64,000 bases of DNA from Paenibacillus sp. G2S3 (lineage in GTDB: Bacteria > Bacillota > Bacilli > Paenibacillales > Paenibacillaceae): NCBI RefSeq assembly GCF_030123105.1, contig NZ_CP126095.1, positions 5,146,001-5,210,000 on the forward strand. Reading direction: 5' to 3'. Below the pieces are notes generated by a model that saw only the letters and a program-made list of their open reading frames with translations, searched no databases and was not told where the DNA came from. The position numbers were made by a program, and so were the translations under genes. Within the stretch, counting starts at the first letter, position 1; each line of letters starts with the position of its first letter. Below are positions 9,766-49,719 of the stretch, piece after piece.

Positions 9766-10947
9766 TTAGTTCTCCTCTCCTTCCTCCGGCTGACGCCGTT
9801 CTTCTTCGGTTAGCTGTAAGAACAGCTCTATTAGCTTATCTTCCGGTTCCGCTCCACCTGTCTGACGCTGATAGAATTTACGGAACAATTCTTGCACCGG
9901 CATTCGTGAACGGGCAGTTTGTTCGAGCTCCATCTCCATTTGCGGGTAGATGGGACGAATATGAATGATCCCCTCGCGTGATTTGCGCAGGCGCTGAATA
10001 TCATTCATCGACATGGCTTCACTAAGCCGAATCTCCAAATCTATAAAAGCAGAGGCATCTCTACCTTCATCCAGCCAGTTATATACCTCCTGCAATCCAC
10101 CTGTGGAGCTCCATCTTACAAGCGGACGCCCACAGCGAAGATAGATTTCTTCAAAGGTTGGCTCACCACCCGGCGCAACATCAATCAGCGTCACCGATTT
10201 AGCCTGTCCTGCTTCAGAAAAACTGTATGCCAGCGGAGATCCGCTGTAACGGATCATTCCTTCCCCTTTGACACGTTGTGCGCGATGAAGATGACCTAGT
10301 GCAGTATATTGCGCTCCACAAGCCAAAGCAGAAGGATCAACGGTATACGCTCCGCCCACTTGAATTGGACGTTCCGAATCACTTTCCACACCACCAAGCA
10401 CATAAATATGGCTCATCGCCAAATTTACAGTCTGCGGCGTGAATTCCCGTCCCAACAGCTGCATGAGCTTGCCTACCCGTGCGCTATAAGCCAGTCGAAG
10501 CTCCTCTTCTCCGCTATCTCCTGCAAGCAGTTCACCGAGACGCGCCTCGGAGGGATAAGGAAGAGCTGCGATTTTGGCGATCTCACCCGTGCGTACAGCA
10601 TGAACAGTCACTGGCTCTGAGGTAGGAAGCCCCACTAATGTAATCCCCTGCCTTAATACAAGCGGTGAGACTGAAGATACGCGCTCCGGTTGATCATGAT
10701 TTCCGGCGATTACAACAAGGGGCCTGCCCCCTGAAGTCAGCCTTGCAGCAGCCTCATAGAATAGTTGTTCTGAAGCCGCTGGTGGATTAACGGAATCGTA
10801 CACATCTCCCGCCATCATTATCAAATCCACTTTATGAAAATCGGCGATCTCCACCAGTTCATCTATGAACTGCTCTTGCTCCTTCTGCCGGCTTCTTCCT
10901 TCCAGCGTTCGGCCGAGGTGCCAATCTCCCGTATGCAATATCCGCAT
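9766..10947 (-). CDS. sbcD: Exonuclease SbcD (Mre11-type nuclease)
   Basis: 393 residues with all metallophosphoesterase motifs: HTGDWHLG (5-12), MMAGDVYDS (about 45-53), VVIAGNHDQ (about 78-86), SHIYV and LGHLHRAQ. This is the nuclease subunit of SbcCD, which processes hairpins and protein-blocked ends. It is in the addB-addA-sbcD-sbcC operon, 41 bp after addA and one base before the sbcC GTG, so the four genes form one double-strand-break-processing unit. It is intact even though sbcC appears broken. Confidence 0.96.
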   Translation of the reverse strand: MRILHTGDWHLGRTLEGRSRQKEQEQFIDELVEIADFHKVDLIMMAGDVYDSVNPPAASEQLFYEAAARLTSGGRPLVVIAGNHDQPERVSSVSPLVLRQGITLVGLPTSEPVTVHAVRTGEIAKIAALPYPSEARLGELLAGDSGEEELRLAYSARVGKLMQLLGREFTPQTVNLAMSHIYVLGGVESDSERPIQVGGAYTVDPSALACGAQYTALGHLHRAQRVKGEGMIRYSGSPLAYSFSEAGQAKSVTLIDVAPGGEPTFEEIYLRCGRPLVRWSSTGGLQEVYNWLDEGRDASAFIDLEIRLSEAMSMNDIQRLRKSREGIIHIRPIYPQMEMELEQTARSRMPVQELFRKFYQRQTGGAEPEDKLIELFLQLTEEERRQPEEGEEN

Positions 10948-19003: not shown

Positions 19004-19450
19004 GGACTCAGGAGTCACTATTCTTAAATTTTGTGCTGTTTTGGCAACTTTTCGGACTCCAGTGAAGTTATTCTTCACGAAATTGCCCCATCTCAGCTAG
19101 TTTGAGATCAATAGCGCCTGTGGAGTCCGCAACGGTCAAAATATTGGCTTTTTTCTCTGTTTAGTGCCATCTGAGTCCTATAGCAACTTCTTCCCTATGA
19201 ACACCCTAAAGACCAGCCTCGTTACCGCTTATTGTCTAGCTCCCCTACAATTAATCTTTCTGCTGGAATACATTCGGACTCAGGAGTCACTATTCTTGAA
19301 TTTTGTGCTGTTTTGGCAACTTTTCGGACTCCAGTGAAGCTATTCGTCGCGAAAGTGTCCGATTTCGGCTGGTTGGGGGTCAATAGCGCCTGTGGAGTCC
19401 GCAACGGTCAAAATATTGGCTTTTTTCTCTGTTTAGTGCCATCTGAGTCC
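19004..19450. repeat. 175-bp four-motif element, array of two copies
   Basis: Two copies, cores 19004-19178 and 19276-19450, each exactly 175 bp, with period 272. Each core carries GGACTCAGGAGTCACTATT at its left end, GGACTCCAGTGAAGCTATT (or TTATT) 50 bp later, then AATAGCGCCTGTGGAGTCC ending 50 bp before TTTAGTGCCATCTGAGTCC at the right end. The outer pair and the inner pair can each form an imperfect stem. The 97-bp linker (CTTCCCTATGAACACCC onwards) is also conserved between copies. Function unknown. Confidence 0.9.
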
Positions 19451-19532
19451 TATAGCAACTTCTTCCCTATGAACACCCTAAAGACCAGCCTCGTTACCAC
19501 TTATTCTCTAGCTCTCCCTACTGTTTGGTAAA

Positions 19533-19673
19533 AATAAAGTGTTAGACTGGAGTCGTTGATTTAACGCGGTTTTTGAATTGAAAAATCGTCAGCTTTTGAA
19601 AAATAAGTTTTAGACTGATCCATTAAAAAAAAGCAGCGGCGGACCAAGACTTGATAAATAAAGTCTTAGACTG
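19533..19673 (+). repeat. Three copies of a 17-mer AATAAAGTnTTAGACTG, left side of accessory island
   Basis: Copies at 19533-19549, 19602-19617 (one base shorter) and 19657-19673, all in forward orientation. The first and last are followed after 4-13 bases by GTCGTTGA(N)2TAACG. Two more copies in the opposite orientation lie at 22929-22962 on the other side of the MerR/ABC/lipoprotein segment. Confidence 0.7.
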
Positions 19674-19712
19674 CCGCTGTTGTCGTTGAACTAACGTTCC
19701 CCGTTAGTTCAA
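19623..19712 (-). terminator. Two consecutive hairpins after the GNAT gene
   Basis: Directly behind the stop codon is a perfect 11-bp stem TTGAACTAACG/CGTTAGTTCAA (19686-19696, 19702-19712). Next comes a second stem CAGCGGC...CCAAGACTT/AAGTCTTAG...GCCGCTG (19634-19679), which on the minus strand runs into TTTTTTTTAATGG. The second has the form of a rho-independent terminator; the first may protect the 3' end. Confidence 0.75.
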
Positions 19713-20117
19713 TCATATCAACTCTGAGATAAACATTGGTGTAGCTCCATCCTCTGTATTAAAGCCAAATTTATTATAGAAATCCTTTGCATGAGGATAA
19801 GAAATTAATACTTTTGTTTTACACCCTTTATATCTATCAAGCATTATATTCATCATTTCCTTACCTATACCTATACTCTGATAACTCGGATTAATAAGCA
19901 TATAATGAAAATATACCGTTAAAACACCATCTGACAAAGCATTTATTAAACCGACAAGCTTTCCTCCTTCCCAAGCGGTAACAATTGAATGAGATCCTCC
20001 GATGGCTTGTAAAAGCTCGTTTGGATACTTGCCAGACTCCCATTCTACCGAAAGAAATAACTCTTGAAGTGCATCCTTAGTGATATCCTCTTTGCTTGAA
20101 GCGTAATAAATACTCAC
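19713..20117 (-). CDS. GNAT family N-acetyltransferase
   Basis: 134 residues from a GTG preceded by GGAAGG. The acetyl-CoA-binding motif A is INPSYQSIGIGKEMMNIML (about residues 74-92), following the beta-strand VGLINALSDG and YFHYMLI. The end, HAKDFYNKFGFNTEDG, is the usual motif B of small GNAT proteins. The substrate cannot be told. It stands alone with its own terminator in an AT-rich segment bounded by repeats, consistent with accessory origin. Confidence 0.85.
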   Translation of the reverse strand: MSIYYASSKEDITKDALQELFLSVEWESGKYPNELLQAIGGSHSIVTAWEGGKLVGLINALSDGVLTVYFHYMLINPSYQSIGIGKEMMNIMLDRYKGCKTKVLISYPHAKDFYNKFGFNTEDGATPMFISELI

Positions 20118-20417
20118 CCTTATACCTTCCTTTCATAAAACTAACTACGGCACAACATCTGTTTTAAACTCCCATATTTCGATGGTTTTGCAATCCTTAC
20201 GAAGCCATAAAATAATACCGACAAAGCAATTTCGGATTTATCAAAGTGAATAATCACTTTATTTACCTCAATATACTATTAAAAATATGTATAGAAAATG
20301 GATTAACTGAAGTGGAATTTGTATTTATTCACATTAGAGAATTCATGAGAATAATCGGCGAAGTATAACATTCTTGTCCTCAGCCAGGGGTAAGAAACGT
20401 GATTCCTTAATCAAAAA
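20118..20417. other. AT-rich intergenic region, no supported gene
   Basis: Nothing convincing. A 40-codon GTG frame at 20246-20368 has no ribosome site and no recognisable similarity. The region contains the GNAT gene's promoter end and is visibly AT-rich like the rest of the island. Confidence 0.5.
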
Positions 20418-20440
20418 AAAGCCGCTAAATTAGCGACTTT
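20411..20440 (-). terminator. Terminator after the MerR gene
   Basis: Stem AAAGCCGCTAA/TTAGCGACTTT (20418-20440) with one mismatch and a tiny loop, followed on the minus strand by TTTTTTTTGATT. Confidence 0.65.
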
Positions 20441-20486
20441 CAATCGAACAATTTTCTTTTCCTAAGCCTTTTCCTTTGTATTTATT

Positions 20487-21281
20487 CTAACATGTGCGTT
20501 TCTTAATGAACAGTTGTATCTGATAATCCCACTGCAATATTCCAGTCACAATAATGTTATGAAGAACAAAATCTGGACACACATCGTATTCCGTCTTTGC
20601 CCTTTCAAGTAAATTTTTTAATACAGCATTCTTATTCTCTTCGGTACAATTTGCACACAGATAGTCCCCTTCTGGTAGCACAGTCAGCCCCTCTAAAGAC
20701 GGATATTTCAAGCAAACAGCAAATAATCGTGTTATTCCTTCAGTCGTGAACATTCCCGCCATATCTTCAAACAGAAATTGTGAATGCAGAGACGTTTCAA
20801 TTTGTTGATAGAAATGTCTGTGATAGTCCCATAAATTCTTAAGTGTGGGGCTGTCCATTTTATTCGAAAGCATAATTACCCTTTCCTCTATGTGTCTGAC
20901 AAAGTAATTTTCACTTTGACTATAACCATTGTGGAACTTATTTTCATAATGTAGATAGGCACGTTTAATTTTTGATTTTGCATACTGCAGACGAGCAATT
21001 TTATCGTCTGCTCTTTTTTCTGCCTGTTTTAGAAATGCAATTACTTTAGAGAGATCATTCTGCTGCAAAATATCTTTAATATCCATTAAAGTAAGATCCA
21101 TTGCTTTAAGCAGTTCAATGGTTTGCAGCTTTACGAGCTCCTGCTCGGAATAGTATCGATATCCCGACAATTCATCTTTATGGCATGGCTTGACTAATCC
21201 AATACGATCATAGTGCCGCAAGGTCTCACTGGTCATCTCTACGATCTCTGCTGCTTGCTTAATTGTAAAATAGTTGTTCAT
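20487..21281 (-). CDS. MerR family transcriptional regulator with C-terminal effector domain
   Basis: 264 residues from the ATG at 21281 (MNNYFTIKQAAEIVEMTSET), with AGAGGG upstream; the longer open frame adds a hydrophobic leader that belongs to the divergent promoter region. Residues 1-70 are the MerR winged helix (TSETLRHYDRIGLVKP, SGYRYYSEQELVKLQTIELLKAM) and 75-115 the dimerising coiled coil. The remaining 145 residues are a sensor domain I do not recognise; it has three cysteines near its end, in YLCANC and DVCPDF. It faces a MerR-type operator at 21292-21322 and probably controls both itself and the decayed ABC operon to the right. Confidence 0.85.
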   Translation of the reverse strand: MNNYFTIKQAAEIVEMTSETLRHYDRIGLVKPCHKDELSGYRYYSEQELVKLQTIELLKAMDLTLMDIKDILQQNDLSKVIAFLKQAEKRADDKIARLQYAKSKIKRAYLHYENKFHNGYSQSENYFVRHIEERVIMLSNKMDSPTLKNLWDYHRHFYQQIETSLHSQFLFEDMAGMFTTEGITRLFAVCLKYPSLEGLTVLPEGDYLCANCTEENKNAVLKNLLERAKTEYDVCPDFVLHNIIVTGILQWDYQIQLFIKKRTC

Positions 21282-21291
21282 ATCTACCCTC

Positions 21292-21322
21292 TTGACCTTT
21301 TTGTAACACAAAAGTTTATGAT
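21292..21322 (+). promoter_or_regulatory. MerR-type promoter/operator with 19-bp spacer
   Basis: -35 TTGACC (21292-21297), a 19-bp spacer and -10 TATGAT (21317-21322), with an inverted repeat CTTTTTGT-AAC-ACAAAAG centred in the spacer. Over-long spacers carrying a dyad are the hallmark of MerR-activated promoters, which the regulator untwists. It points at the transporter remnant at 21395 and lies immediately upstream of the merR start. Confidence 0.65.
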
Positions 21323-21394
21323 GATTAAAACATATGCGACTGATAAACGCAACGAAATACAAAAATGAATTTATTACCAGAGAGGAAGGCAAAA

Positions 21395-21490
21395 ATGATA
21401 GAACTAAATCATGTATCAAAGGATTATCAAAAAGCATTTTTCCTTAAGGACTTTACGTTAAAGATTGAGACCTGTGGTATTTACTCCTAG
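21395..21490 (+). pseudogene. ABC transporter ATPase, N-terminal remnant
   Basis: Preceded by GAGAGGAAGG, the frame starts MIELNHVSKDYQKAFFLKDF, the classic opening strand pair of an ABC ATPase, but ends at a TAG after 31 residues, before Walker A. Nothing of the remaining roughly 200 residues is present downstream, so this is the stump of a deleted gene. It is correctly placed behind the MerR-type promoter. Confidence 0.75.
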
Positions 21491-21814
21491 CTATTACCGC
21501 AGTATTGGTATCTATGGTGAATACATTTATCCATCTGGTAGTTGACCCCATCAATAAGACACAAATCATAGTCAATCTGCTTGAACTTTGCGGCTGGTGG
21601 GAAAATGGTGTAATCCTTGCATTTCCTCAGTAGTTTGCCTTTTTGCTATTGACGGCTATATTCCTGCATGTATTGCTGTCTAGGCAGTCATATTTGGGTA
21701 GACTTTTTCAAGATCATTATGTTCAACTCTAATGCTTTGTTGCATATCGGAATTTGTCTGCGTAGCAGCTTAAGATTGGCATTCATAGGACTGGCTATAT
21801 TAAAAAGAAAATGA
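21491..21814 (+). pseudogene. ABC permease remnant, frameshifted
   Basis: In one frame 21491-21634 reads LAITAVLVSMVNTFIHLVVD...LELCGWWENGVILAFPQ up to a stop. After that stop the same frame continues FAFLLLTAIFLHVLLSRQS. In a second frame 21723-21814 reads NSNALLHIGICLRSSLRLAF and ends GLAILKRK, a typical membrane-protein tail. The hydrophobic patches across frames indicate a decayed integral membrane subunit. Together with the ATPase stump it represents a collapsed transporter operon. Confidence 0.55.
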
Positions 21815-21836
21815 TTTAACGAAGGAGCATTTTATA

Positions 21837-22511
21837 ATGAAAAGTACTGCAAAAAAATTACTAACTACTATAGGCATATTGGTGACACTATTGATATCAT
21901 TGGCAGGATGTTCCTCCGACTCCACTTCCATGGAGGAAAAAAATTACGTCATCCCTGCCCAAAAGATTGATACCTTAACAATTGATGTAAAGGACAAAAA
22001 AATAAATATCCTCCAATCTAAAGATGAACAAATTCATATTGTTTACTATGAAAGTGAGAAAGATTTTTACAAGATTGATCTATCTGACGATAAAGAACTG
22101 TCAATGGTAAGTGATAGTAATAAGGAATGGAACGACTATATCGGAGGAAAAAGCTCGCAAGTAACCAGAACTATTCAGGTATGGATACCTGATGCAACTT
22201 TAAAAAATTTGACTTTAAAAACATCAAATGAAAGTATTGTATTACCAACAATCGTGTTTTTAGGGACAGTGGAAGTAAACATAAATAACGGAAATATCCA
22301 GCTGGACAAATTGAATGTAGGGACTGCTATAACCCTTAAAACAAAAAACGGAAATATTAGCGGTTCAATTCTAGGGTCATATGATGATTTCGCGATCTTA
22401 AGCAAGGTAAAGAAAGGAGATAGCAATTTGCCTGCCAATAAAGAGAATGGTTCGAAAAAATTATCTGCTTATACAAATAACGGCGATATTACCTTACAAT
22501 TTTCTGAGTAG
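21837..22511 (+). CDS. Lipoprotein with DUF4097-like beta-repeat domain
   Basis: 224 residues; GAAGGAG nine bases before the ATG. The signal peptide ends in a lipobox, ISLAGC (C at about 25), so the protein is predicted to be anchored outside the membrane. The body is a repetitive beta-helix-like pattern (IDVKDKKINILQSKDEQIHI, TLKTSNESIVLP, VNINNGNIQLDKLNVGT, LKTKNGNISGSILGS, AYTNNGDITLQF) typical of DUF4097 proteins. Such proteins often accompany MerR- or two-component-regulated ABC exporters, so it is probably the surviving last gene of the decayed operon. The function is unknown. Confidence 0.8.
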   Translation: MKSTAKKLLTTIGILVTLLISLAGCSSDSTSMEEKNYVIPAQKIDTLTIDVKDKKINILQSKDEQIHIVYYESEKDFYKIDLSDDKELSMVSDSNKEWNDYIGGKSSQVTRTIQVWIPDATLKNLTLKTSNESIVLPTIVFLGTVEVNINNGNIQLDKLNVGTAITLKTKNGNISGSILGSYDDFAILSKVKKGDSNLPANKENGSKKLSAYTNNGDITLQFSE

Positions 22512-22928
22512 CCAGTAGTTAAATATTAGCTCGTATGAAGTCAGATACAATATTGAAAGGGATAACCCCTGTTTCACTTTTGAAACCTCTGGTCCTACCT
22601 CTTCGACTATTCCACCGGCCTATGACCGATAAAATATCCCTCTTGTATGGAAAATCACCTTGATAAAGTTGTTGATCCGACCCGTAAATCAATTATCTTA
22701 TGATGTACCCGAGGGCCAAAATTAAGCTTGATCGTGACTTCCATCAAAATAAAGTATAAGTCGCATTACAGCGGCTTATACCTTCATGTTTTTGTTTGAC
22801 TGTCTTGAACCATCCTTTGGACTGAATGTATCCGATGCATATAAAAAGTACTACTATCGATATAATTAAAATAATACCGTATATTGGATATTCAAACGAT
22901 CCTGCCAGTTAGCTTAATGAAGCATCGT
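22512..22928. other. Intergenic region downstream of the lipoprotein
   Basis: No gene supported in 417 bases. It contains the hairpin at 22754-22781; the remainder is featureless AT-rich sequence leading into the inverted 17-mers and the second repeat array. Confidence 0.5.
22754..22795 (+). terminator. Possible terminator after the lipoprotein gene
   Basis: Stem GTATAAG-T-CGC/GCG-G-CTTATAC (22754-22763, 22772-22781) followed by CTTCATGTTTTTG. It is 240 bp past the stop, so its assignment to the lipoprotein transcript is uncertain. Confidence 0.45.
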
Positions 22929-22962
22929 CAGTCTAATACTTTATTAAGTCTAAAACTTTATT
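22929..22962 (-). repeat. Two tandem inverted copies of the 17-mer, right side of accessory island
   Basis: On the minus strand 22945-22929 reads AATAAAGTATTAGACTG and 22962-22946 reads AATAAAGTTTTAGACTT, directly abutting. They are the inverse of the three copies at 19533-19673. Confidence 0.7.
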
Positions 22963-23005
22963 TTCTTTTGACACCTACAATTAACCTTACTGCTGAATTA
23001 CATTC

Positions 23006-23723
23006 GGACTCAGGAGTCGCTATTCATGAATTTAGTGTTGTTTTGGCAACTTTTCGGACTCCAGTGAAGCTATTCGTCGCGAAAATCCCCCATCTCGGCC
23101 AGTTTGGGGCCAATAGCGCCTGTGGAGTCCGTAACGGTTCAAATATTGGCTTTTTTCGCCGTTTAGTGTCTTCTGAGTCCAATAACAGCTTCTTCCCTAT
23201 GAACACCCTAAAGAGCACCTCGTTACCGCTTAATGTCTAGCTCCCCTAAATTTAATCTTACTGCTGAATTACATTCGGACTCAGGAGTCGCTATTCATGA
23301 ATTTAGTGTTGTTTTGGCAACTTTTCGGACTCCAGTGAAGCTATTCGTCGCGAAAGTCCCCCATCTCGGCTAGTTTGGGGTCAATAGCGCCTGTGGAGTC
23401 CGCAACGATCAAAATCCAAGCTTTTTTCGCTGTTTAGTATCATCTGAGTCCTATAGCAACTGCTTCCCTTATGAACACCCTAAAGAGCACCTCGTTACCG
23501 CTTAATGTCCAGCTCCCCTAAATTTAATCTTACTGCTGAATTACATTCGGACTCAGGAGTCGCTATTCATGAATTTCGTGCTGTTTTGGCAACTTTTCGG
23601 ACTCCAGTGAAGCTATTCATCGCGAAAGTCCCCCATCTCGGCTAGTTTGGGGTCAATAGCGCCTGTGGAGTCCGCAACAATCAAAATCCAGGCTTTTTTC
23701 GCTGTTTAGTATCATCTGAGTCC
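23006..23723. repeat. 175-bp four-motif element, array of three copies
   Basis: Cores 23006-23180, 23277-23451 and 23549-23723, each 175 bp, period 271-272, same orientation and same linker as the array at 19004. The four GGACTC motifs keep their positions in all three while the sequence between them varies (for instance ATATTGGC against ATCCAAGC). The whole 22962-23880 stretch is repeat or repeat-derived and contains no gene. Confidence 0.9.
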
Positions 23724-33502: not shown

Positions 33503-33677
33503 GGACTCAGCTGATCTTATTCGCAGCATAATCGCCCATTTGGAATACTAACGGACTCCATAGTCGCTATCGCCATGAAAAACAGCAAATATAGACTTCT
33601 TTCTAAGGAATAGCGACACTGGAGTCCGAAACTATGCCCAAAAAGCAAAAAAATTGCAAATAACGTCATCCGGGTCC
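33503..33677. repeat. 175-bp four-motif element, single copy
   Basis: Exactly 175 bp, with motifs at offsets 1, 51, 107 and 157: GGACTCAGCTGATCTTATT and GGACTCCATAGTCGCTATC forward, then the reverses of GGACTCCAGTGTCGCTATT and GGACCCGGATGACGTTATT. The sequence between motifs is largely unlike the other arrays. It lies in the 33406-33820 gap between azlD and mtaB, which otherwise holds only the hairpin at 33756-33794. Confidence 0.85.
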
Positions 33678-48326: not shown

Positions 48327-49345
48327 GGACTCAGATGACCTTAAACGCTGGATTATGCGATATTCGCTATGTTAACGGACCCCATAGTCGCTATTGGCAT
48401 GAAAAACACCAATTATGAGCGCTTTTTTGGGGGATAGCTGCACTCGTGTCCGAAACTTCGCTTCAAATCCAATATATTGGCAAATAGCGTCTGCTGAGTC
48501 CGATAGCATCAGAGAATGATTATACTCGGCACCTCTCGGACTCAGATGACCCTAAACGCCGAATTATGCGATATTTGGTATGTTAACGGACCCCATAGTC
48601 GCTATTGGCATGAAAAACACCAATTATGAGCACTTTTTTGGGTATAGCTGCACTGGAGTCCGAAACTTCGCTTCAAAGCCAATATATTGGCAAATAGCGT
48701 CAACTGAGTCCGAAAGCATCGAAGAATGATTATACTCGGCACCTCTCGGACTCAGATGACCCTAAACGCCGGATTATGCGATATTTGGCATGCTAACGGA
48801 CCTCATAGTCGCTATTGGTATGAAAAACACCAATTATAAGCGCTTTTTTGGGGAATAGCTGCACTGGAGTCCCAATCTTCGCTTCAAAGCCAATATATTG
48901 GCAAATAGCGTCTGCTGAGTCCGATAGCATCGGAGAATGATTATACTCGGCACCTCTCGGACTCAGTTGACCCTAAACGCTGGATTATGCGATATTTGGC
49001 ATGCTAACGGACCCCATAGTCGCTAATGGTATGAAAAACACCAATTATGAGCGCTTTTTTTGGGGGATAGCTGCACTCGTGTCCGAAACTTCGCTTCAAA
49101 TCCAATATATTGGCAAATAGCGTCTGCTGAGTCCGATAGCATCGGAGAATGATTATACTCGGCACCTCTCGGACTCAGATGACCCTAAACGCCGGGTTAT
49201 GCGATATTTGGTATGTTAACGGACCTCATAGTCGCTATTGGCATGAAAAACACCAATTATGCGCACTTTTTTGGGGGATAGCTGCACTCATGTCCGAAAC
49301 TTCGCTTCAAAGCCAATAAATTAGCAAATAGCGTCAACTGAGTCC
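48327..49345. repeat. 175-bp four-motif element, array of five copies
   Basis: Cores 48327-48501, 48538-48711, 48748-48922, 48959-49134 and 49171-49345 (174-176 bp) with period 210-212 and a short conserved linker CGATAGCATCGGAGAATGAT. Each core has GGACTCAGATGACCCTAAA and GGACCCCATAGTCGCTATT forward and, reversed, GGACTCCAGTGCAGCTATA and GGACTCAGTTGACGCTATT (copy 2 quoted). Compared with the arrays at 19 and 23 kb the order of motif types is inverted, so these are the reverse orientation of the same element. They occupy most of the gap between the subtilase and dnaJ. Confidence 0.92.
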
Positions 49346-49412: not shown

Positions 49413-49611
49413 GGGTTACGGGTTACGGGTTACGGGTTACGGGTTACGGGTTACGGGTTACGGGTTACGGGTTACGGGTTACGGGTTACGGGTTACGGGT
49501 TACGGGTTACGGGTTACGGGTTACGGGTTACGGGTTACGGGTTACGGGTTACGGGTTACGGGTTACGGGTTTTACGGGTTTTACGGGTTTTACGGGTTTT
49601 ACGGGTTTTAC
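49413..49611 (+). repeat. Heptamer microsatellite (GGGTTAC)x22 followed by (GGGTTTTAC)x5
   Basis: 49413-49566 is exactly 22 perfect copies of GGGTTAC; 49567-49611 is five perfect copies of GGGTTTTAC, followed by seven Gs. The second unit is the first with two extra Ts. Because seven is not a multiple of three, the 21-bp superperiod leaves the forward frames free of stops and produces spurious ORFs. Confidence 0.97.
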
Positions 49612-49719
49612 GGGGGGGTTCCAGCCCGTAGAGTTTACTGGCTCTAACACATTCTTTAAACCTTATGAGATGGGCTAGCTTGCCCTACTAACAGTCGACA
49701 TGCGCAAACTACCTTAATC

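What the first reader, a model, noticed from the sequence alone, without database searches (positions are those of the whole stretch)
48327..49345. A 175-bp element with four phased GGACTC-N7-GCTATT motifs, eleven copies in this window
Eleven copies occur at four sites (19004, 19276; 23006, 23277, 23549; 33503; 48327, 48538, 48748, 48959, 49171). Core length is 174-176 bp in every copy. Each has four 19-bp motifs at offsets 1, 51, 107 and 157: two forward, two reversed, so the element is mirror symmetric with a 50-bp step (offsets measured in copies from all but the 23 kb array). Outer motifs read GGACTCAG..., inner ones GGACTCCA..., and all end near GCTATT. Between the arrays the spacers have diverged far more than the motifs, which suggests selection on the motifs and on their spacing. 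Two readings fit: a nested RNA or cruciform structure (outer with outer, inner with inner, each stem having a central bulge), or a protein array that binds paired, phased sites. I know of no named family with this layout.
Basis: seen in the sequence. Interest (0 to 1): 0.85.

Follow-up and report, generated by a model that had tools for sequence, protein, structure and literature searches.

The report
Four-site, probably wrapped DNA repeat element
A roughly 187-base non-coding DNA element, built from four copies of one binding site at fixed distances, is scattered between genes in many Paenibacillus-type bacteria; its sites and exact length appear to be kept by selection and its A/T-rich steps recur every ten bases, so an unknown protein probably wraps the DNA there.

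Summary
In detail: eleven copies of 174-176 bp, four oriented sites at offsets 0/50/106/156. The family is far larger: 189 half-elements in this genome, some in 71 of 100 same-genus genomes (0-335 halves each) and 78 of 198 genomes of the order; backwards-pattern controls gave 3 and 6 hits. The unit is ~187 bp, (G)CTAAC-GGAC...GTCC-GTTAG(C). RNA or cruciform structure is not supported: the arms do not covary. The box before GGAC covaries among all four sites, as for one trans-acting protein. Between three related species, elements at six shared loci align without gaps, core 94% identical against 78% in spacers and 73% in flanks; broken copies are not seen above chance. Between its motifs the element conserves A/T rather than particular bases every ~10 bp, replicated in further genomes and genera: the mark of DNA bent around a protein. 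One genome holds ~50-bp head-to-tail arrays of a similar unit. Best reading: a phased, wrapped nucleoprotein element, enriched between convergent genes, spread earlier like a mobile repeat, now held by selection. Protein and function are unknown.

The parts
19004..19178 (.). four-site element, copy 1 of the array upstream of addB
19276..19450 (.). four-site element, copy 2 of the same array
23006..23180 (.). four-site element, copy 3 of the same array, beyond the insertion
23277..23451 (.). four-site element, copy 4 of the same array
23549..23723 (.). four-site element, copy 5 of the same array
33503..33677 (.). single four-site element between azlD (+) and mtaB (-), convergent; copies at the same place in G001 and G007
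48327..48501 (.). four-site element, copy 1 of the five-copy array (about 211-bp period)
48538..48711 (.). four-site element, copy 2 (174 bp, central step -1)
48748..48922 (.). four-site element, copy 3
48959..49134 (.). four-site element, copy 4 (176 bp, central step +1)
49171..49345 (.). four-site element, copy 5

Best explanation
The element is a DNA site, not an RNA. Each ~187-bp unit carries four copies of one asymmetric site (upstream box, most often CTAAC, then GGAC-N6-GNC-N-YTATT), two pointing each way about a dyad, 50, 56 and 50 bp apart. SHOWN: core and length are kept at shared loci across three species; the spacers keep A/T content, not particular bases, every ~10 bp; the box changes together in all four sites. 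INFERRED: one unknown protein binds all four sites and the DNA follows its surface, A/T-rich minor grooves turned inward each helical turn, in a wrapped complex of ~18 turns. INFERRED, less sure: the complex is architectural (topology or domain marking behind genes, where convergent transcription piles up supercoils), comparable in role to REP/BIME elements. The family spread earlier by copying or transposition; in this clade the surviving copies are held in place by selection.
For: In-place selection: 14 species-to-species comparisons at 6 shared loci, no gaps, core 526/560, rest of motif 393/504, spacers 1079/1386, flanks 1897/2592; the flanks had 100 internal indel events in 28 x 100 bp. 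Intact or absent: in 1.24 Mb, 45 elements score 58-100 and none lies between -5 and 58 (steps within 2 bp); independent of spacing, single sites of >= 8 bits outside elements number 26, 20 and 18 in the three blocks against 28, 23 and 28 in reversed sequence, while 178 of the 180 sites in elements reach 10 bits. Protein, not pairing: arms do not covary, while positions -6 to -1 covary in all six site pairs (z 3.2-5.4, 49 dereplicated elements). Helical phasing: A/T maxima about every 10 bp, best period 10.1, 0 of 2000 column shuffles as strong, spacers alone too; replicated in 34 dereplicated halves with A and T mixed at several of those columns. Placement: 2 of 176 groups inside a large ORF; convergent pairs 47 of 159 against 18.9% expected (p 0.001), and in the blocks 10 of 28 against 41 of 304 other intergenic regions (p 0.003). 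Breadth.
Against: No binding protein was identified, and no neighbouring gene recurs enough to point to one. Many genomes lack the element (29 of 100 in the genus), so its function is dispensable or clade-specific. Homogeneous subfamilies and copies within single genomes (G003, G014) show copying, which a purely architectural site does not explain. The rest of the motif is no better conserved than the spacers. Loci are not all shared: of seven G000 loci with flanks in the other blocks, five have an element in all three species and two in two, and G007 has at least two (2029345, 2134643) that G000 and G001 lack. Orthologous partners were first found by the matrix, the comparisons share species, and they are few. 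Placement is a bias only: 31 of 159 groups lie between divergent genes. Some A/T peaks (the A of GGAC, positions 4 and 54 and their mirrors) are off the 10-bp phase.
Confidence: 0.55

Rival explanations
1. A non-autonomous transposon (MITE): each half is a transposon end with two transposase sites, and the unit is two ends back to back, copied by a transposase encoded elsewhere.
For: Dispersed copies with sharp ends at about -6; homogeneous subfamilies within a genome; patchy presence; box covariation fits a co-evolving transposase. The dinucleotides at -4/-3 and +3/+4 are equal in 26 of 71 copies against 16.8 expected (p 0.0004), 23 of them TA/TA, so a TA duplication as in IS630/mariner (recalled) cannot be excluded. 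Two sites per end recalls Tn7, IS21 or Mu ends (recalled).
Against: The same dinucleotides match better as inverted repeats (31 of 71 against 16.7) and TAAC also precedes the inner sites, so TA belongs to the site; no longer duplication stood out. 301 of 314 half-elements belong to four-site units; the only two-half pairs found apart (3 loci, one species) hold the same IS110-family gene, not a parent transposon. Copies are retained at shared loci with core-only conservation and no visible broken copies. Three empty sites examined were not clean.
Confidence: 0.25
2. Operators for a transcription regulator that loops or wraps DNA to control adjacent genes.
For: Multiple oriented, helically phased sites; some loci conserved beside the same genes in three species.
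Against: Roughly 95-170 elements in the rich genomes of this clade (189-335 halves), enriched between convergent genes and not at divergent promoters; no strongly recurrent gene class next to them (largest cluster 7 of 315 neighbour proteins, one member scanned is AraC-type).
Confidence: 0.12
3. A structured RNA or cruciform, outer site paired with outer and inner with inner.
For: Dyad complementarity 55% against 19-30% at other offsets; some copies fold better than shuffles (z -6.75 at 33503, -4.0 at 23277).
Against: Four copies of one motif give such complementarity by construction; no covariation of arms across dereplicated elements nor along the dyad of single sites; the copy at 48327 folds little better than shuffles (z -1.6); no Rfam family.
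Confidence: 0.04

Closest known systems
REP / BIME elements and REPINs (enterobacteria, Pseudomonas; recalled)
   Same: Many intergenic copies, inverted arrangement, arrays, genome-specific subfamilies; an IS110-family element inserts into them (IS621 in REP, recalled; here three loci in Cohnella rhizosphaerae).
   Different: REPs are 20-40-bp palindromes tied to RAYT (Y1) transposases; here four ~24-bp sites in ~187 bp, no pairing constraint, and neither this genome nor G001, the richest found, has a Y1 match.
MITEs / multi-site transposon ends (Tn7, IS21, Mu; recalled)
   Same: Two like-oriented sites per end, inverted ends, dispersal.
   Different: No parent element found, fixed internal length, in-place conservation; a duplication is at most the TA of the box.
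Gyrase-wrapped sites (BIME-2, Mu SGS) and Lrp-type wrapped arrays (recalled, not tested)
   Same: DNA wrapping over >100 bp; sites behind genes; helical phasing.
   Different: No four-site GGAC motif or 50/56/50 layout is known to me for them.
Nucleosome-positioning sequences (recalled)
   Same: A/T steps every ~10 bp without fixed bases.
   Different: Bacterial; phasing is tied to four specific sites.

Membership tests
REP/REPIN-RAYT | short palindromic REP able to form a hairpin | tested here: not met
   No covariation between arms or along the dyad of single sites.
REP/REPIN-RAYT | cognate Y1 (RAYT) transposase in the genome | tested here: not met
   PF01797 matches in 56 of 100 genomes, among them rich ones (G007 9, G071 12, G075 11), but 0 in G000, G001 and G099 despite 189, 335 and 144 half-elements, and 6, 8 and 12 in G041, G053 and G093, which have no half-element.
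MITE | target-site duplication | tested here: inconclusive
   No duplication longer than 2 bp stood out in 71 flank-dereplicated copies; TA/TA in 23 of 71 cannot be told from the inverted TAAC/GTTA box.
MITE | related autonomous element with the same ends | tested here: inconclusive
   13 of 314 half-elements unpaired; 6 of these are three pairs apart with an IS110 gene between; 7 were not followed. Only held loci were scanned.
MITE | precise empty sites in relatives | tested here: inconclusive
   Three loci aligned, none clean.
Structured RNA family | compensatory base changes | tested here: not met
Structured RNA family | match to a curated family | tested here: not met
   No gathering-level match in the window; around the 48-kb array two sub-threshold hits, both left of the first copy.
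Wrapped nucleoprotein site (gyrase- or Lrp-like) | A/T phasing at the helical repeat over the element | tested here: met
   Period 10.1 bp, 0 of 2000 shuffles as strong; halves of further genomes, period 10.0, 0 of 2000, also with 3-bp blocks.
Wrapped nucleoprotein site (gyrase- or Lrp-like) | a protein shown to bind and wrap it | not testable with these tools
   Needs footprinting or pull-down.

The most novel reading that the evidence does not exclude
A bacterial counterpart of a nucleosome-positioning element: a fixed ~187-bp, about 18-turn DNA unit with four sequence-specific anchor points that an undescribed protein wraps, scattered over whole chromosomes as topological marks; a relative uses the same ~50-bp, five-turn step as longer head-to-tail arrays.
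Probability: 0.33. Interest if true: 0.92.

Novelty: new variant of a known kind. Interest (0 to 1): 0.8.

Why it matters
It is a large, order-wide family of non-coding DNA with a rigid architecture that the curated RNA library does not hold and that my literature searches did not turn up. Sequence-encoded helical phasing outside the recognition motifs is rare evidence for programmed DNA wrapping in bacteria. The cognate protein could be sought by pull-down with one 187-bp probe, and spacer insertions of 5 against 10 bp give a direct test. If architectural, it opens chromosome organisation in Paenibacillaceae to experiment; if mobile, it points to a transposition system not identified here.

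Tried and rejected
RNA and cruciform structure: rejected on absence of covariation although single copies fold well. Polarity of the element: only a marginal gain when copies are oriented (information 107.97 against 107.31 +/- 0.17 in eight re-paired sets), so treated as symmetric. Parent transposon: three split elements first looked like autonomous copies but hold one IS110-family gene, a later insertion. REP/RAYT: rejected because element-rich genomes lack Y1 genes. Neighbour gene as trans-acting factor: 315 neighbour proteins clustered; the largest clusters were 7 (one member scanned: AraC-type), 6 (the subtilase/SLH gene of the window and relatives) and 6 (ORFs of Cohnella-type loci); none was followed further. 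Twenty further loci showed no shared neighbour by eye. Clean empty site: three candidates, none clean. Viral spread: one viral contig matched, not followed. In the orthology test I left out the addB-side array because its copy number differs between species, and took one copy of the 48-kb array per species. The missing G007 partner of G000:5223372 is not a decayed element, but one site-like remnant (16.8 bits) lies at the edge of that region. A first quartet script missed 58 loci through a naming slip and was rerun.

Papers: I saw search listings and the starts of abstracts only; none was opened. Statements on REP/RAYT, REPINs, IS621, BIME-gyrase, Lrp, nucleosomes, Tn7, IS21, IS630 and Mu are recalled.

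Full report
OBSERVATION. The eleven copies are present at the stated places. A position-weight matrix built from the sites finds them as four-site elements with steps 50/56/50; two differ by one base in the centre. In three chromosome blocks of together 1.24 Mb (G000 with the window, G001, G007) 45 such elements score 58-100 and, with each step allowed to vary by 2 bp, nothing else scores above -5; reversed sequence gives nothing. In all, 161 elements were found in the three blocks plus 119 contig pieces of named records, 98 of them with exactly 50/56/50. Of them 103 hold a four-site element; among the 16 without are the five from distant taxa (Clostridiales, Flavobacterium, Pirellulaceae, Paludibacter, Gammaproteobacteria), presumably chance matches.

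DISTRIBUTION. The half-element pattern with up to 2 mismatches occurs in 71 of 100 same-genus genomes, 0 to 335 times each; control total 3. In the order it occurs in 78 of 198 genomes and 22 of 43 genera; control total 6. In a class-wide draw (GGAC or GGAA, at most 1 mismatch) 9 of 299 genomes match, one of them outside the order. Named carriers are mostly Paenibacillus and Cohnella, also Ammoniphilus and Alkalihalobacterium. Some genomes use GGAA in place of GGAC. In genomes whose copies were listed, spacers form genome-specific subfamilies. One genome, G258, has head-to-tail arrays of a similar unit (GGC..., GCC(G/T)CTATT, most with TAAC or TAGC in front) at a period of mostly 50 bp (50-53 or multiples), 4, 5, 9, 10, 13 and 16 exact sites in the six arrays fetched, one orientation per array.

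ANATOMY. Conservation extends to about -6 outside GGAC and then stops, giving (G)CTAAC GGAC ... GTCC GTTAG(C), ~187 bp. Site: GGAC at 1-4, G at 11, C at 13, YTATT at 15-19; positions 5-10, 12 and 14 vary. No duplication longer than 2 bp stands out in 71 copies; TA at -4/-3 and +3/+4 (23 of 71) could be a duplication or the inverted TAAC/GTTA box, and the box reading fits better because the inverted match is stronger and inner sites carry TAAC too.

NOT A PAIRED STRUCTURE. In 55 dereplicated elements opposing arms are no more complementary than arms shuffled among elements, and 252 dereplicated sites show no covariation along their own dyad. Instead the box at -6..-1 covaries among all six pairs of sites (z 3.2 to 5.4), while motif and downstream spacer do not (highest C-D in the motif, z 2.2); at -12..-7 only B-D (3.1) and A-C (2.1) stand out. 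A stem would link only A with D and B with C; a shared binding protein links all four. Part of this may be that some lineages have relaxed the TAAC box.

SELECTION IN PLACE. Of seven G000 loci (the split array counted once) whose flanks are found in the other blocks, five carry an element in G000, G001 and G007 and two in two of them; two further G000 loci had no flank match in the held blocks; G007 has at least two elements that G000 and G001 lack. In 14 comparisons at six loci both partners are 175 bp and align without gaps; core positions agree in 526 of 560 cases, the rest of the motif in 393 of 504, spacers in 1079 of 1386, flanking 100 bp in 1897 of 2592. The flanks show 100 internal indel events in 2800 bp. 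The comparisons share species. Partners were found by the matrix with steps within 2 bp, so copies with larger indels would be missed; I therefore counted single sites without any spacing rule: outside elements they are at the level of reversed sequence (26, 20, 18 against 28, 23, 28 at 8 bits; at 16 bits 0, 4, 3 against 0, 0, 3), and none lie two together within 400 bp at 12 bits. Elements are thus almost always intact or absent.

HELICAL PHASING. Numbering the first G of GGAC as 1 and the base before it 0, the A/T fraction in 29 dereplicated 175-bp elements (both strands pooled) peaks at -2, 17, 27, 37, 48, 67, 77 and 88 and at the mirror positions; further peaks at 4 and 54 (the A of GGAC) are off this phase. 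The best period is 10.1 bp, stronger than all 2000 spacer-column shuffles, also with motifs masked; the flanks show no such peaks by eye. Thirty-four dereplicated halves from 27 further loci of the same and other genera give the same peaks, period 10.0, with A and T mixed at several columns (27: 17 A, 14 T; 28: 18 A, 13 T; 77: 14 A, 12 T), also under 3-bp block shuffles. Conserving weak pairs rather than bases at the helical repeat is expected when DNA is bent smoothly around a protein; it would explain why indels are not tolerated.

PLACEMENT. Elements are intergenic (2 of 176 groups inside a large ORF) and enriched between convergent genes (47 of 159 against 18.9%, p 0.001; blocks 10 of 28 against 41 of 304, p 0.003). 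Gene calls were crude longest-ORF calls.

SPREAD. In G014, 26 copies fall to 10 after removing those with similar flanks, and the 10 share only the unit; other G014 copies share flanks too. In G003 the unit is embedded in a larger repeat of ~530 bp. So copying has happened. Three elements in Cohnella rhizosphaerae are split, with the same distance between the halves, by an IS110-family gene (PF01548 and PF02371 in all three, the ORF of L057 shorter; NF033542 in the one scanned), so this insertion sequence appears to use the element as a target.

CONCLUSION. A phased, probably wrapped protein-DNA element with a past of dispersal and a present of in-place selection. The binding protein and the cellular role remain to be found; an architectural or topological role behind genes is my favoured inference, a non-autonomous transposon the main rival.

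Noticed in passing
window 19522-22973: A ~3.45-kb insertion splits the array upstream of addB: ends TGT...ACA, CCTAC on both sides (5-bp duplication), repeats AAGTNTTAGACTG at 19537, 19605, 19661 and, reversed, 22929; this looks like Tn7-type ends (recalled) around a GNAT gene, a MerR regulator and a DUF4097 gene; no transposase among these three ORFs.
   Followed up: partly
L298:9935-12330 (G080): G080 has an element next to the addB-like gene at the same kind of locus, followed by MerR and DUF4097 genes and one such repeat (AAAGTCTTAGACTG) at 10257, perhaps another form of the same insertion.
   Followed up: partly
window 49416-49615: A ~200-bp run of the 7-bp unit TTACGGG, ending in TTTTACGGG units, directly beside the five-copy array.
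   Followed up: no
L292-L297 (G258): Six arrays of ~50-bp head-to-tail units (4-16 exact sites each), each array with its own variant of the GGC...GCCGCTATT core.
   Followed up: partly
L135:3750-5641, L094:1754-3645, L057:5625-7517: The same IS110-family insertion in three elements of Cohnella rhizosphaerae, with equal distance between the halves.
   Followed up: partly
L221-L240 (G003): A ~530-bp dispersed repeat contains the element; its right end carries an inverted repeat followed by T-rich sequence (CACCCGCTAGGGTGATTTTG), by eye like an intrinsic terminator.
   Followed up: no
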